Of a stretch of DNA of 21,121 nt, positions 2,621-13,367 are shown in pieces. A program made the position numbers and the translations under genes. This stretch comes from a virus: positions 1 to 21,121 of the IMG/VR virus record IMGVR_UViG_3300025889_001135; one strand, 5' to 3'. Within the stretch, counting starts at the first letter, position 1. The number at the start of each line of letters is the position of its first letter. The notes under the pieces are model-generated. The model saw only the letters and a list, made by a program, of their open reading frames with translations. It had not been told where the DNA came from and did no database searches.

Positions 2621-3366
2621 GCGACCTCCAAAGTGTCATAGATTTCCTTGCAGACCTTCACCACATCATGCTCCCCGTGCTTTACGAGAGCCGGAAGCAA
2701 CCCGTTACAACGAACAGTGATGTAGGATGGGAACCGGCGAACAATCTTCGCCATCTCCTCCGCCTGCATAAGCATTTGTGGCGATGTCAGGTACTCCCCC
2801 CCGCCACATTCAACGATGATTTCCCGGCCCATGCCTTTAGGGTGTTTGTATGCGTGGCCCTGGCCAGCCGTCTTGCTGCTGTCACATCCGAAAAACGTGA
2901 TGTGTCTATGCCCACGCCAATGTGCGAAGAACGGAACAGTCCCCGCCGACGTTGTGACGTGCTGGTGTTCATCTTTACCTGTGCCGAGAGGGACTATTTC
3001 AATTTTCGTCCCTTCCGCTATCAAGCGGCTGAGTAGCGCCGGACTCACGAAATCACCAAGGACGGCCCGCGCCACTCCATCCACGCCCGGGAAAACCGGG
3101 TCTATCGTGTAGAGGGTTGCGTCAATTCCATTATCCCGACACCATACCCACGTATAGTTGACGGCCCATATTTCACCGTCCCACCCTCGCAACTCGTCCA
3201 GATGGTCGTTAATACTTGGCGCACCGCCGACCACGGCGAGGCTGGGAGCCGCAGCCCCGACCTTGCCCGGCTTGATAACCGGAAGGCCGAGGCTCCGACT
3301 GTAAGATTTGTGGCGGGCGATTGTTTCGGCAGATACCGAACTTACCGCCTCAAACCTCAACCCCAT
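2617..3366 (-). CDS. DUF115/MptE-like protein in the capsid operon
   Basis: 249 aa. Its ATG shares a base with the upstream TAA (TAATG) and its end overlaps the adaptor start by ATGA. Residues about 43-93 carry LAVVGGAPSINDHLDEL, then EIWAVNYTW and DATLYTIDP. This has the layout of the DUF115 (MptE-like) fold: a Gly-rich nucleotide-binding loop followed by an acidic D-P element. A later segment, ITFFGCDSS, is also typical of that fold. Family members include pterin pyrophosphokinase-like and motility-associated glycosyltransferase-like proteins, and phage copies have no assigned role. Its place inside a structural operon suggests a virion- or host-surface-modifying enzyme, which I infer only from context. 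Confidence 0.6.
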   Translation of the reverse strand: MGLRFEAVSSVSAETIARHKSYSRSLGLPVIKPGKVGAAAPSLAVVGGAPSINDHLDELRGWDGEIWAVNYTWVWCRDNGIDATLYTIDPVFPGVDGVARAVLGDFVSPALLSRLIAEGTKIEIVPLGTGKDEHQHVTTSAGTVPFFAHWRGHRHITFFGCDSSKTAGQGHAYKHPKGMGREIIVECGGGEYLTSPQMLMQAEEMAKIVRRFPSYITVRCNGLLPALVKHGEHDVVKVCKEIYDTLEVA

Positions 3367-3575
3367 TACGAGTCAGCAATCAACCCGAGCGACTCCAAAG
3401 CCGCCGAAAGCGACTGGAGGTTGCTGACCACCGTTGCAATGGTTGCGCCCGTTGCGACCGCAGTAACGGTCTGCTGGGCAATGGCCGTGACGCCGTAGAA
3501 CGAAATGAGGTCGGACGTATCCTGACCCACCGAAACGCCGTCGGGACCGCCATCGGAAAGCTGTTTAACAGCCAT
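3366..3575 (-). CDS. Small capsid-associated protein (decoration or head-fibre type)
   Basis: 69 aa. A good ribosome-binding site (AAGGAG, 8 nt before ATG) follows a terminator-like hairpin. The N-terminus MAVKQLSDGGPDGVSVGQ leads into TSDLISFYGVTAIAQQ and a helical Ala/Thr/Ser-rich C-terminus ending in GLIADS. Short proteins with a DG..LG.S.TD.I.FYG.TPV.Q pattern directly after major capsid genes are common in phages and are usually unnamed virion proteins. Placement after the coat gene supports a decoration or head-fibre role; there is no catalytic motif. The stop TAA overlaps the next ATG. Confidence 0.65.
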   Translation of the reverse strand: MAVKQLSDGGPDGVSVGQDTSDLISFYGVTAIAQQTVTAVATGATIATVVSNLQSLSAALESLGLIADS

Positions 3576-3589
3576 GTGCTTTCTCCTTC

Positions 3590-3615
3590 AAAAGGAACGG
3601 GGCCGAAGCCCCGCT
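3590..3615 (-). terminator. Terminator-like hairpin after the major capsid gene
   Basis: In the minus-strand transcript an 8-bp stem, AGCGGGGC paired with GCCCCGTT (two outer weak pairs), closes a TTCG tetraloop and is followed by CCTTTTG. It lies six bases after the coat stop codon and before the ribosome-binding site of the 69-aa gene. The T-run is short, so partial termination or 3'-end protection of abundant coat mRNA seems more likely than full termination. Downstream genes in the same operon must still be expressed. Confidence 0.6.
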
Positions 3616-3620
3616 CATGG

Positions 3621-4841
3621 TTACGCAGTGCCGCTAAGGCGCACGGCCTGACGCGGATCAATGGCCTTCACGCCGTACAGCATGTCGAGACGCCACATGG
3701 AATGGTCGTTGATGCCGTCATAGACGGGGATCACGCGAACCGAGGTTCCCTTGTAGGTCTCGCGGCCCACGTCAGTAGCGCCCGGAGGCGAAACCAACGG
3801 AACCGACACCAGCGCGAAGGCGTTCTTGTTGAACACCATGTTCTGCCGGTAGTTGGTCGAAGCCGTACCTACGCCAGTAATGGCCTTGGTGTTCAGGTCC
3901 GTGGTGCCGGAAGCAACGGCAACATTCTGCTGCGCCCCCGTCCAGATCATCGCCGGGCTGATGACCAGCGAGTTACTGGAGTACGAAACAACGGTGAACT
4001 GCTTGGAGAAACCAAGGTCCGCTTTCGTCACCGGGTTGACCGCGTTCACATCGGCAATCGTGATCACATCACCGGCAACGAACGTGCCGCCAGCAATCGT
4101 GATCGTCTGCTGATTGGTCGTGCGAACGTCCGAGTACGCAATCGTCGAGGTCGTGATAGACTGGTTGACCGTGACGGTCGTGAAGTCGGAACCCGTGGTA
4201 TGGGTGGCGACGTTCTGCGACATGTACGTATCGACACCGCCGATCATGCCAAGCGAACCCTTGCGATAGGCACCCTTCGCCACGTCCTGCATGTACAGGC
4301 TGGTCTGCGAGCCGAGAAGGCCCCAGTGGTCAGCCGGAGACAGGACCGCGCATCGGTCGCCAGCAGGGACGCCGTACTCGTCCAGACGTTCCGGCGCTTT
4401 CGCAAAGTCAGCGTAGGAATTGACCGTCTGGCCCGGAGTGCCGACCCAGTTGGGGACCTCCTTGTAGAGCGCGTGCAGATCGGTATCGACCTGGTTGGCA
4501 AGCTGGATCATCGCCGGACGAATGACGCGCTCGGACAGTTCCTTGATGTCCAGCGTCAGCTCCTGCGACGTGAACTTGAAGTCGATGCCCTTGCGCTTGT
4601 CCACGGTGATCGTGGTGCTGCCCTCGACGACATCCTGTGCATTCGCAACAGCGCCGTCACGGACGGTGAAGTCAGTCGGACGGCGGATGGTGATCGAACT
4701 ACCGACCTCATAGCCGTTGACCTTCTTCGCGAAGTCTTCTTCGTAACCGCGAAACACCTTCTTCGCCATGACCAGCTCGTTGTCGAGAATGGCGACAGCG
4801 GCCTTGGCGATGATGCTCGCAGTAAGTTTGGCGTTTGCCAT
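3621..4841 (-). CDS. Major capsid (coat) protein, P22 gp5-like
   Basis: 406 aa, close to the 430 aa of P22 coat protein. The start has GAAGGAG upstream plus AAGGA directly before the ATG. The N-terminus (MANAKLTASIIAKAAVAIL, then ELVMAKKVFRGYEEDF) and the segments GSSITIRRPTDF, GIDFKFTSQELTL and IRPAMIQLANQVDTDLHALY match the P22-type coat family (HK97 fold). The central Thr/Val-rich stretch (about residues 210-330, with VTVNQSITTS and TIAGGTFVAGDVITI) looks like the inserted beta-domain of that family. The gene lies between scaffold and small virion genes, as expected. Short hairpins sit in both flanking intergenic gaps. Confidence 0.9.
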   Translation of the reverse strand: MANAKLTASIIAKAAVAILDNELVMAKKVFRGYEEDFAKKVNGYEVGSSITIRRPTDFTVRDGAVANAQDVVEGSTTITVDKRKGIDFKFTSQELTLDIKELSERVIRPAMIQLANQVDTDLHALYKEVPNWVGTPGQTVNSYADFAKAPERLDEYGVPAGDRCAVLSPADHWGLLGSQTSLYMQDVAKGAYRKGSLGMIGGVDTYMSQNVATHTTGSDFTTVTVNQSITTSTIAYSDVRTTNQQTITIAGGTFVAGDVITIADVNAVNPVTKADLGFSKQFTVVSYSSNSLVISPAMIWTGAQQNVAVASGTTDLNTKAITGVGTASTNYRQNMVFNKNAFALVSVPLVSPPGATDVGRETYKGTSVRVIPVYDGINDHSMWRLDMLYGVKAIDPRQAVRLSGTA

Positions 4842-11242: not shown

Positions 11243-12199
11243 TCAAGTTGGCGGGGTGGGGGCAAAGCTTTCTTGGTCGTCATCCCAGACCTGGCCCCTC
11301 CACGCCCGCCACAGGTGCTTGAGCACCCGTTTCTCAGTATAGCGCCTTGCCGCTTTGTCGGCTCGCGCTTTCGTCCACTTACCATCTCCCGCCTCGACCC
11401 GCGCCATGTAGTCGGATTTCTTCGCGTGATAAACCTCGCCGTATGGGCCAAGCGGCTTGATGAACTCGCCGGTTTCCTCATCGACGCGGGACAATTGCGC
11501 CTTGAACAGTGAGTCCATTGCTTGCCACGACACCGACCGGCGCGACGGATTATAGCCCTCGCCAATCCAGCGCATCTTCATCTCCGCCTTGTCTGATGTT
11601 TTATCGGGCGCGCCCTGTCGTTTGCCCCACTCATTCACCGCCAATCCGAGGCGCTTCCACACCTTACCTGGGTTGGCGTAGTTATCGAGATTGCCAGTCT
11701 CACCGATAATCATGGCGAGGGACTTGGCCCCGAGGCCCTTCACGTCCTTGGCCCACGCATCCCAGACTGGCAACTGCTTGCCTAGTTTCTCTAGTGCCTT
11801 ATCGTGTTCCTTGATTGCCGATTCAAACGGCGCAACACCGCCAAGGGTGATTGCGATGAGACCTGAGACAGCATCGAACGCTTCTTGATCAACACCATCC
11901 ATCTTACCTTTCTCAACGGCGGCAATCAGTGAATCGGATTGCTTCTCGATCTTCTTGCGGTCCTTTTCTTCATCGAACGTCGAGTAGCCATAGACGTTGA
12001 ACCGGATAAATGATCCGAGCTGCAAGCGGATACTGTTCTTGACCTTGATAAGATAAAGGCGGCGGCGGTGGTGCGCGCGCATCTCGTCACAAAGGTCTTC
12101 AAGGGCGGGGGAGGCACCAGCCTGATGGGTGTCGGGTATGCAGTGGCCTCCCCCTTCGGCGGCATGCGAGACTCCGCCGAAATCTTCATTCTCTCTCAT
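11243..12199 (-). CDS. IS110-family transposase-like protein with C-terminal Tnp20/HhH domain
   Basis: 318 aa; AGGAG 6 nt before the ATG. Residues 16-31 are encoded by one of the 48-nt hairpin modules. Then comes a helical, basic region (CDEMRAHHRRRLYLIKVKN). At 150-186 lies a helix-hairpin-helix-like stretch (KDVKGLGAKSLAMIIGETG, then VWKRLGLAVNEWGK). A C-terminal part follows, with MRWIGEGYN, GEVYHAKKSDY and YTEKRVLKHLWRAWRG, resembling the second domain of IS110 transposases (G.G..A..L..E.G......LGL). I see no N-terminal RuvC-like DEDD domain and no SG-type catalytic serine, so it is unlikely to be an active IS110 recombinase. Similar stand-alone proteins occur in phages without known function. 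A nucleic-acid-binding role is inferred. No IS ends or target duplication were found. Confidence 0.65.
   Translation of the reverse strand: MRENEDFGGVSHAAEGGGHCIPDTHQAGASPALEDLCDEMRAHHRRRLYLIKVKNSIRLQLGSFIRFNVYGYSTFDEEKDRKKIEKQSDSLIAAVEKGKMDGVDQEAFDAVSGLIAITLGGVAPFESAIKEHDKALEKLGKQLPVWDAWAKDVKGLGAKSLAMIIGETGNLDNYANPGKVWKRLGLAVNEWGKRQGAPDKTSDKAEMKMRWIGEGYNPSRRSVSWQAMDSLFKAQLSRVDEETGEFIKPLGPYGEVYHAKKSDYMARVEAGDGKWTKARADKAARRYTEKRVLKHLWRAWRGQVWDDDQESFAPTPPT
12107..12154 (-). repeat. 48-nt hairpin module, copy A (inside the IS110-like gene)
   Basis: On the plus strand GGGGGAGGC (12107-12115) pairs perfectly with GCCTCCCCC (12146-12154) around a 30-nt loop carrying ATGGGTGTC at 12125-12133. It spans exactly codons 16-31 of the host gene and encodes GGGHCIPDTHQAGASP. 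See copies at 12217, 12283 and 12616. Confidence 0.75.
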
Positions 12200-12216
12200 T
12201 GTCTTCTCCTGTTAAT

Positions 12217-12264
12217 GGGTGGGGCAAGCGGCCCTTGGATAACACTTGAACTTTGGCCCCACCC
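12217..12264 (-). repeat. 48-nt hairpin module, copy D (divergent)
   Basis: On the plus strand GGGTGGGGC (12217-12225) pairs perfectly with GCCCCACCC (12256-12264) around exactly 30 nt. The loop core is degenerate (AGTGTTATC on the strand where the others have ATGGGTRTC). Codon phase and the ends of the encoded peptide (G.GQ...PP) match the other copies. It lies just upstream of the IS110-like gene's ribosome-binding site. Confidence 0.6.
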
Positions 12265-12282
12265 TCCCTTGCGGGATGGTTT

Positions 12283-12330
12283 GCGGGAGACACTAGACGC
12301 ATGGGTGTCAGACAGCCCCTGGCCTCCCGC
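12283..12330 (-). repeat. 48-nt hairpin module, copy B
   Basis: GCGGGAGAC (12283-12291) and GCCTCCCGC (12322-12330) pair at eight of nine positions as plus-strand DNA. In the minus-strand transcript the ninth position is a G-U pair. The loop is 30 nt with ATGGGTGTC at 12301-12309, the same offset (18) as copies A and C. A smaller nested stem GGG.TGT/ACA.CCC (12303-12318) is possible inside the loop. It lies 15 nt after the amber stop of the upstream gene. Confidence 0.75.
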
Positions 12331-12345
12331 ACCCCTTTCGGGGAA

Positions 12346-12888
12346 CTAAACCTGTGTCTGGTTGTCGATCCGCTTCATCAATTTCTCCGCAGATTCTTCC
12401 GTCCAGAAGTCAGAACACGGCTTGCTGCCCGGCGGCATCGGATGCGCCAGCGCGTCGAATATCTTGGACTTCTTGGCATGACGTACTGAAAGGGTCTGCA
12501 ACTGATCCTTGGTCAACGTCCCGACCTTGCCGAACTCGGTGTCCCAATCCAGCAATGACCCGTAAACTTGAGACACCATGCGAATGGCTGATTTTCTCGG
12601 GCCGGGGGATGGTTTGGGCGGGACACGTCCACAATGGGTATCAGTAATGCCCTGGTCCCGCCCTGCCACGTCCCGGAGGTACGCGGCAATCCTGTCATCG
12701 CGTGTCGGGGAGAACAGTTCCCACAACAGCGTTGCGTCTTTCCTCACCATATCAGTGAACAGCTTTTGCGCCCGCTCGAAGCTCTGACCTGATTGCCCAA
12801 TGGCGTCCTTCGCCACGAGCATCAGACGTTCATCTACGGGCTTAAACCCCGCTGCACCAAATGCTTCTTTCATTGCTGTTGCACCCAT
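12346..12888 (-). CDS. Hypothetical protein carrying a hairpin-module insert
   Basis: 180 aa from the ATG at 12888, which overlaps the upstream TGA (TGATG). An in-frame GTG one codon earlier is also possible. The N-terminal half is helical (KPVDERLMLVAKDAIGQSGQ, then FERAQKLFTDMVRKDATLLWE and DDRIAAYLRDVAG). Residues 76-91 are the 48-nt module (GRDQGITDTHCGRVPP), followed by a Pro/Lys-rich linker. The C-terminal half contains RMVSQVYGSLLDWDTEFGK and SVRHAKKSKIFDALAHPMPPG. No family recognised. The module sits between two folded-looking segments, as expected of a tolerated in-frame insertion. The gene ends in TAG with a long in-frame extension (12196-12345). Confidence 0.7.
   Translation of the reverse strand: MGATAMKEAFGAAGFKPVDERLMLVAKDAIGQSGQSFERAQKLFTDMVRKDATLLWELFSPTRDDRIAAYLRDVAGRDQGITDTHCGRVPPKPSPGPRKSAIRMVSQVYGSLLDWDTEFGKVGTLTKDQLQTLSVRHAKKSKIFDALAHPMPPGSKPCSDFWTEESAEKLMKRIDNQTQV
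12616..12663 (-). repeat. 48-nt hairpin module, copy C (inside the 180-aa gene)
   Basis: On the plus strand GGGCGGGAC (12616-12624) pairs perfectly with GTCCCGCCC (12655-12663) around a 30-nt loop with ATGGGTATC at 12634-12642. It fills codons 76-91 of the 180-aa gene in the same codon phase as copy A. The stem differs from copy A at several positions, each compensated on the other arm. Confidence 0.75.
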
Positions 12889-13367
12889 CACGCCACCGCC
12901 CTCTCACCCGCGTTGAACAGCTTGTCGAGGATCTCCAGACCGTCCAGTAGGTGCTTATCGGATCGGCGCTTGCGGGCGTGAAACAGCATTGACGGATAGC
13001 GGCTGTAGACCGCCGCATTGTCCACCGCGTCCTTGATGGCGCGTGAGTGTGATGCCAGCAGGTTTGCAGCCTCCCAGTAGTCGCGCTCGCATTTCTCCAT
13101 CGCCGCTTCGGACAGTTCGGGGCTGCCGTCGCTTGTCCCCGGCGTGGTCCTGCCGAATACCCGCCCGTATAGTTCCGCGTACTTCACGCCAGCGTCATGC
13201 CTTGACTGGTCGATGAACTCCCGCGCCCATAGCGCACCAAGGGGATACGCGCCCCGCTGTTCGTCGCCGTTGGCAATGGAACCGATCTTCGCCTTACGCA
13301 TAGCTTCTTCCTGTTGGTGTACGATTTGCAGCATGATGTCCTTTCTCGGTCTTCCTCGTTTAGCCAT
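12888..13367 (-). CDS. Hypothetical protein with basic RGRPRKD N-terminus
   Basis: 159 aa from the ATG at 13367, which has GGAAGG 8 nt upstream. The open frame extends further upstream, but those codons overlap the neighbouring gene and look non-coding. The N-terminus MAKRGRPRKDIML contains an AT-hook-like RGRP core. The body is helical (MLQIVHQQEEAMRKAKIG, then WAREFIDQSRHDAGVKYAELY, MEKCERDYWEAANLLASHSR and YPSMLFHARKRRSDKHLLDG). A DNA-binding accessory role is possible but not shown. Confidence 0.75.
   Translation of the reverse strand: MAKRGRPRKDIMLQIVHQQEEAMRKAKIGSIANGDEQRGAYPLGALWAREFIDQSRHDAGVKYAELYGRVFGRTTPGTSDGSPELSEAAMEKCERDYWEAANLLASHSRAIKDAVDNAAVYSRYPSMLFHARKRRSDKHLLDGLEILDKLFNAGERAVA

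What the first reader, a model, noticed from the sequence alone, without database searches (positions are those of the whole stretch)
12107..12663. Four 48-nt hairpin modules with covarying stems and a fixed loop core
Copies at 12107-12154, 12217-12264, 12283-12330 and 12616-12663 all have 9-nt stem arms and exactly 30 nt of loop. Three share ATGGGTRTC at the same offset of 18, with AC at the loop start and TG at its end. Stem bases differ between copies but change in compensated pairs: position 2 with 47 is G-C or C-G; position 4 with 45 is G-C, C-G or T-A; position 6 with 43 is A-T or G-C; position 8 with 41 is G-C, A-T or G-U. That is the signature of a structure being maintained. It is not a CRISPR array, an IS end or a known REP that I recognise. 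It looks like a small dispersing palindromic element with both structural and coding constraints.
Basis: seen in the sequence. Interest (0 to 1): 0.85.

Follow-up and report, generated by a model that had tools for sequence, protein, structure and literature searches.

The report
Phage TIGR stem-loop guide-RNA array
The four hairpins are not a mobile repeat but guide-RNA units of a recently described RNA-guided system (TIGR-Tas): each appears to carry two 9-letter guide segments, and the protein that should use them is encoded right next to them in this phage.

Summary
Four 48-nt hairpins (9-bp stem, 30-nt loop) lie at the stated places; 0 of 300 shuffles gives one this strong. The reading as a mobile palindrome does not hold. 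That is the stem-loop form of a TIGR guide RNA (Faure et al. 2025): box C/D motifs around two 9-nt spacers, with variable palindromic stems. They surround the gene at 11243-12199(-), whose best sequence and fold match in the PDB is the RNA-guided protein TasR (E 5e-11; the top ten folds are all TasR or TasH). It has no nuclease domain, so it is a TasA. Related loci (Rhizobium, Shinella and Mycobacterium phages, IMG/VR contigs) carry the same units beside the same gene. In 14 sister mycobacteriophages the tas gene differs by 2.4% and the spacers by 52-69%, as expected of guides. Targets were not found. New points: units embedded in frame in ORFs; last bases of the two spacers complementary far above chance; tractable phages that carry the system. 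New member of a known kind.

The parts
11243..12199 (-). tasA-like gene (318 codons from ATG 12199 with a Shine-Dalgarno AGGAGA upstream; conserved protein from about Met40, 12082). Solo Nop/IS110-C-terminal-type domain with N-terminal helices, no RuvC or HNH domain
   Evidence: phrog_4285 'transposase' 3e-13; PDB profile search 9MTY TasR E 5e-11, TasH E 0.012; AF2 pLDDT 77, Foldseek top ten all TasR/TasH, then IS621 and box C/D Nop5
12616..12663 (-). stem-loop unit 4: stem GGGCGGGAC/GTCCCGCCC; spacer A GGGCATTAC (12644-12652), loop repeat UGAUACCCA (12635-12643), spacer B TTGTGGACG (12626-12634); lies in frame inside ORF 12346-12891(-)
12283..12330 (-). stem-loop unit 3: stem GCGGGAGGC/GTCTCCCGC (extends by one pair to 12331/12282); spacer A GGGGCTGTC (12311-12319), loop repeat UGACACCCA (12302-12310), spacer B TGCGTCTAG (12293-12301); intergenic
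12217..12264 (-). stem-loop unit 2: stem GGGTGGGGC/GCCCCACCC; spacer A AAGTTCAAG (12245-12253), loop repeat UGUUAUCCA (12236-12244), spacer B AGGGCCGCT (12227-12235); intergenic, just upstream of the tas start
12107..12154 (-). stem-loop unit 1: stem GGGGGAGGC/GCCTCCCCC; spacer A CTGCATACC (12135-12143), loop repeat CGACACCCA (12126-12134), spacer B TCAGGCTGG (12117-12125); in frame in codons 16-31 of the tas ORF, upstream of the conserved protein
12346..12891 (-). ORF of unknown function (181 aa) that carries unit 4 in frame; codon-position G+C is gene-like before and after the unit, not inside it
   Evidence: no Pfam or PHROG match

Best explanation
A TIGR-Tas locus of the stem-loop type. 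The minus strand, which also carries tasA, encodes at least four tigRNA units. In each, a variable palindromic stem closes a loop made of box C (CCA), 9-nt spacer A, box D' and C' (YG-4 nt-CCA), 9-nt spacer B and box D (UG). The adjacent TasA protein is expected to bind the two C/D box pairs as a dimer, one protomer per pair. It would then use spacers A and B together to find a DNA site, A on one strand and B on the other. With no nuclease domain it would bind, bend or block the target rather than cut it, most plausibly in competition with other phages or mobile DNA. Shown here: unit architecture, linkage to a Tas-type protein, conservation of boxes and stems with hypervariable spacers in relatives. 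Inferred from Faure et al. 2025 (PMC12045711): processing, protein binding, tandem-spacer targeting. Guess: the biological role.
For: All four hairpins fit the box and spacer grammar, 0 of 300 shuffles do. TasR (9MTY) is the best PDB match by sequence, E 5e-11, and by fold: the ten best folds are TasR or TasH. The same units, same strand, 9/9-nt spacers, lie beside homologous genes in Rhizobium phage RHph_X2_25, Rhizobium esperanzae, Shinella sumterensis, mycobacteriophages, and IMG/VR contigs L041 and L005, and in genome locus L080. Stem-only hairpins near tas have the boxes in 30/38 cases against 7/179 elsewhere. In 14 mycobacteriophages spacers differ by 52-69% while tas differs by 2.4% and stems of units 1-4 by 0-14%. 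The last bases of A and B are complementary in 38/81 units against 20.4 expected.
Against: Only four units in the window, fewer than the usual 5-15, and the contig is a 21-kb fragment. No target was found: none in the phages' own genomes, none in five phage genomes above a mispaired control, and IMG/VR matches of 16-17 nt look like chance. No RNA data. TM-scores to TasR/TasH are about 0.45-0.5, so the domain arrangement differs or the model is imperfect.
Confidence: 0.92

Rival explanations
1. A small dispersing palindromic mobile element (like Rickettsia palindromic elements, REP/MITE-type repeats), moved by the neighbouring 'transposase'.
For: Palindromic, several copies, two of them in frame in ORFs; neighbour annotated as transposase in PHROGs; units 3 and 4 share a 10-nt 3' flank AAACCATCCC.
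Against: Copies share no body sequence; stems and 9-nt segments differ in each while only boxes persist. In sister phages stems and flanks stay and only spacers change, the reverse of transposition. The protein lacks a RuvC/DEDD catalytic domain; units are confined to the tas neighbourhood in most genomes.
Confidence: 0.03
2. An IS110-family element whose hairpins are bridge-RNA loops.
For: The protein has an IS110 C-terminal type domain (Pfam Transposase_20 at E 0.18); IS621 structures follow TasR/TasH in the fold search; bridge RNA loops are also dual-guide stem-loops.
Against: No N-terminal DEDD RuvC domain (almost all-helical model); four or more separate single-loop units instead of one two-loop RNA; no transposon ends noticed; closest structures are TasR/TasH, not IS110.
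Confidence: 0.03
3. Cis-acting RNA regulators or protein-binding hairpins in the tas leader mRNA, not guides.
For: All units lie on the sense strand in or just upstream of tas; unit 1 is in its 5' coding part.
Against: Loop segments that would be the binding surface are hypervariable among sister phages; units also lie downstream of tas and tens of kb away in L041.
Confidence: 0.02

Closest known systems
TIGR-Tas, stem-loop array type with TasA (Faure et al. 2025, Science, PMC12045711, section 9)
   Same: Solo Nop-domain Tas protein; palindromic variable stems in place of edge repeats; two 8-12-nt spacers bounded by box C (CCA) and box D (UG); unit-to-unit variation; mobile/phage genome.
   Different: Only four scattered units here; two units sit in frame inside ORFs (not described in the main text I read); loop repeat is a constant-length 9 nt as in dual-repeat arrays; protein only distantly related to solved Tas proteins (about 14-19% identity in the fold alignment).
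TIGR-Tas, dual-repeat type with TasR or TasH (9MTY, 21KL)
   Same: Spacer length 9, box grammar UG...CCA, homologous protein.
   Different: No constant edge repeat, units not in head-to-tail register, no RuvC or HNH nuclease.
IS110/IS621 bridge-RNA recombinase
   Same: Homologous C-terminal RNA-binding domain; dual guides.
   Different: No DEDD domain, no transposon ends noticed, many single-loop units.
Rickettsia palindromic elements and similar ORF-embedded palindromes (from own knowledge)
   Same: Palindromes in frame in genes.
   Different: No shared body sequence, no dispersion; restricted to a tas locus.

Membership tests
TIGR-Tas (stem-loop type) | Nop-domain Tas protein next to the array | tested here: met
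   TasR 9MTY E 5e-11 by profile, top ten PDB folds TasR/TasH
TIGR-Tas (stem-loop type) | Units with two 8-12-nt spacers, each bounded by box C and box D | tested here: met
   CCA-N9-YGNNNNCCA-N9-UG in 4 of 4 units
TIGR-Tas (stem-loop type) | Variable but consistently palindromic stems in place of edge repeats | tested here: met
   9 of 9 pairs on the minus strand in all four; covariation in 38 units
TIGR-Tas (stem-loop type) | Spacers vary between units and between related loci | tested here: met
   Within the window and in 14 mycobacteriophages; the window's own near relatives are too similar to test
TIGR-Tas (stem-loop type) | Tandem array, most often 5-15 units | tested here: inconclusive
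   Four units over 560 bp with a gap; other loci have 5-11
TIGR-Tas (stem-loop type) | Unit RNAs expressed, processed and bound by Tas | not testable with these tools
   needs RNA data
TIGR-Tas (stem-loop type) | Spacers A and B guide binding to opposite DNA strands | tested here: inconclusive
   No target found; complementarity of the last bases of A and B fits
TIGR-Tas (dual-repeat type) | Constant edge repeat alternating with loop repeat | tested here: not met
   stems differ between units
IS110 transposon | N-terminal DEDD RuvC-like catalytic domain | tested here: not met
   279-aa almost all-helical core, no RuvC domain
Mobile palindromic element | Copies share a common body sequence and insert at many places | tested here: not met
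   only box motifs shared; units mostly confined to tas loci
Any Rfam family | Score above the family's gathering cut-off | tested here: not met
   no match; best sub-threshold is COG3860 RNA, 17.4 bits against 42.5

The most novel reading that the evidence does not exclude
Guide-RNA units can be dual-use. Two units here, and two in the L041 phage, are in-frame parts of protein genes, one in the 5' end of tas itself, so that cutting out the guide destroys the message and couples guide supply to TasA level. Sister phages swap the spacer pairs of fixed units as cassettes, which would make this a fast-evolving phage-against-phage interference system whose two spacers read opposite strands with a 1-bp overlap.
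Probability: 0.3. Interest if true: 0.8.

Novelty: new member of a known kind. Interest (0 to 1): 0.62.

Why it matters
Natural targets, spacer turnover and the role of nuclease-free TasA are open questions in the TIGR paper, largely because most loci were metagenomic. This finding leads to homologous loci in isolated, genetically workable phages: at least 74 M. smegmatis cluster-A phage records carry most of the locus, plus a Sinorhizobium phage. Their spacers diverge while everything else stays fixed, and related phages such as Bruns lack the module. That makes the questions testable at the bench. It also shows that genes annotated 'transposase' in phages can be Tas proteins, and that annotated N-termini can run over guide units.

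Tried and rejected
Rfam at gathering and at permissive cut-off: nothing. Nucleotide search in phages: nothing. Near relatives of the window are almost identical and give no covariation. Protein alignment A2 as query gave weak patterns. AF2 with three sequences was poor (pLDDT 50); with five it was usable (pLDDT 77). Target searches: own genomes, five mycobacteriophage genomes against a mispaired control, IMG/VR 16-17-mers. None gave a credible target; the 68 hits of the 16-mer fall in several unrelated gene contexts. Mobile palindrome, IS110 bridge RNA, CRISPR and REP readings were considered and dropped for the reasons in the rivals and membership tables. L035 has two unit-like hairpins inside an ORF with no tas on its 10.8 kb and was left open. 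Most loci from the first pattern scan were chance matches.

Full report
WHAT IS THERE. The window is a 21-kb fragment of a tailed-phage genome held as a virus record, with P22-like portal and coat genes, a GcrA homolog and an ERF recombinase. The four hairpins are real and at the stated coordinates. Each is 48 nt with a 9-bp stem and 30-nt loop. Nothing in Rfam matches.

READ ON THE RIGHT STRAND. All genes around the hairpins are on the minus strand, and the stem of the copy at 12283 is fully paired only on that strand (G.U there, A.C on the plus strand). On the minus strand the four loops read CA-CTGCATACC-CGACACCCA-TCAGGCTGG-T, CA-AAGTTCAAG-TGTTATCCA-AGGGCCGCT-T, CA-GGGGCTGTC-TGACACCCA-TGCGTCTAG-T and CA-GGGCATTAC-TGATACCCA-TTGTGGACG-T, each closed by C.G. 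So the grammar is stem, CCA, 9 nt, YG-4 nt-CCA, 9 nt, UG, stem. A scan for this grammar plus a stem finds exactly these four in the window and none in 300 dinucleotide shuffles.

THE NEIGHBOUR. The gene at 11243-12199(-) matches phrog_4285 'transposase' (3e-13) but Pfam's IS110 C-terminal domain only at E 0.18. A profile of it and its relatives finds, in the PDB, TasR (9MTY) at E 5e-11 and TasH (21KL) at 0.012, and no IS110 recombinase; 9MTY is the accession given in the TIGR-Tas paper. An AlphaFold2 model (five sequences, pLDDT 77) has as its ten best PDB folds only TasR and TasH, followed by IS621/IS110 recombinases, the archaeal box C/D Nop5 RNP and Prp31. It has no RuvC or HNH domain, so by the paper's nomenclature it is a TasA.

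RELATIVES. Unit arrays with the same grammar and strand lie beside homologous genes in Rhizobium phage RHph_X2_25 (about 9 units), Mycobacterium phage Euphoria (5), Rhizobium esperanzae (8), Shinella sumterensis (10 or 11), IMG/VR contig L041 (5 at tas, others in groups elsewhere on the contig), L005 (2, with a longer loop repeat, parsed by eye) and genome locus L080 (3, loop repeats with their own small hairpins). A scan for stems alone, with 30-nt loops and no motif, gives 38 hairpins on the sense strand within 2 kb of tas, of which 30 carry the boxes; elsewhere or antisense it is 7 of 179. Covariation in 38 units is strong, with the caveat that those units were picked with the stem in view. 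The system is rare: 3 of 397 genomes of the order and 1 of 385 of the class, the centre genome counted in each.

SPACERS BEHAVE LIKE GUIDES. In 14 cluster-A mycobacteriophages the five units upstream of tas keep place, stem and boxes, but the 9-10-nt segments differ: mean pairwise difference 52-69% for spacers, 2.4% for tas, 0-14% for the stems of units 1-4 (unit 5: 43%, two stem types). The same spacer pairs recur in different combinations among phages, as if exchanged. Phage Bruns lacks tas and array; in Bxb1 the equivalent stretch between repressor and exonuclease holds other small genes, one annotated superinfection immunity.

A SIGN OF TANDEM TARGETING. The last base of spacer A is complementary to the last base of spacer B in 18 of 43 units of the first set (p 0.003) and 20 of 38 of the mycobacteriophage set (p 0.0008); together 38 of 81 against 20.4 expected, and it is the only strong outlier among 81 position pairs. 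This fits A and the reverse complement of B being read from one site on opposite strands with a 1-bp overlap. A direct RNA pair is not excluded. Caveats: spacers of sister phages are not fully independent, and some spacer ends were set by hand.

UNITS IN GENES. Unit 4 lies in frame in ORF 12346-12891, whose codon-position composition is gene-like on both sides of the unit but not in it. Unit 1 lies in frame in codons 16-31 of the tas ORF, behind a good ribosome-binding site. Whether this couples guide release to TasA level is speculation.

WHAT IS NOT SHOWN. No expression, processing, binding or target. Self-targets are absent in the held genomes, matches in five mycobacteriophages do not exceed a mispaired control, and 16-17-nt composite matches in IMG/VR fall in unrelated contexts. 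A role in competition with other mobile DNA is inferred from the paper's discussion and the immunity-proximal position in mycobacteriophages.

COMPARISON. The paper (PMC12045711, section 9) describes stem-loop arrays with TasA in two clades: palindromic variable stems, two 8-12-nt spacers, boxes C and D. The window fits all features that sequence can test. I could not read the paper's supplement, so I do not know whether these phage loci are listed there; the main text cites mycobacteriophages only through a general reference. I therefore file it as a new member of a known kind.

Noticed in passing
L060 (Mycobacterium phage Euphoria) 44013-45060 and about 74 sister phage records: Genes annotated transposase, HTH or hypothetical in cluster-A mycobacteriophages are TasA-like, each with a five-unit stem-loop array upstream whose spacers are hypervariable while stems and gene are conserved.
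   Followed up: yes
81 units from seven kinds of loci: Last base of spacer A is complementary to last base of spacer B in 38 of 81 units against 20.4 expected; unique among 81 position pairs. Suggests a 1-bp overlap of the two half-targets or an RNA pair.
   Followed up: partly
G001 (IMGVR_UViG_3300049734_000491) 3255-3830 plus, 82197-82590 minus, 126927 minus: This 128-kb phage has more units with another loop repeat (CGACAGCCR) at places far from its tas gene; a second Tas may exist there.
   Followed up: no
L035 2953-3864 minus (IMGVR_UViG_3300032360_000200): Two unit-like hairpins inside an ORF of a phage fragment with no recognised tas gene on its 10.8 kb.
   Followed up: partly
12273-12282 and 12606-12615: Units 3 and 4 share the 10-nt 3' flank AAACCATCCC (minus strand), hinting that they arose by duplication with later change of stem and spacers.
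   Followed up: no
L096 (Bxb1) 42720-43505, L095 (Bruns): The slot between repressor and exonuclease that holds tas and array in Euphoria holds other small genes, one annotated superinfection immunity, in Bxb1; Bruns lacks the module.
   Followed up: partly
L055 1575-2630, L076 4620-5663, L077 4647-5882: Annotated or longest-ORF N-termini of Tas genes in Rhizobiales phages run over one or more guide units; true starts are probably downstream.
   Followed up: no
RHph_X2_25 24832 and L077 4583: The same spacer A (ATGAAGCAT) occurs in a Sinorhizobium phage and a Shinella genome locus with different spacer B.
   Followed up: no
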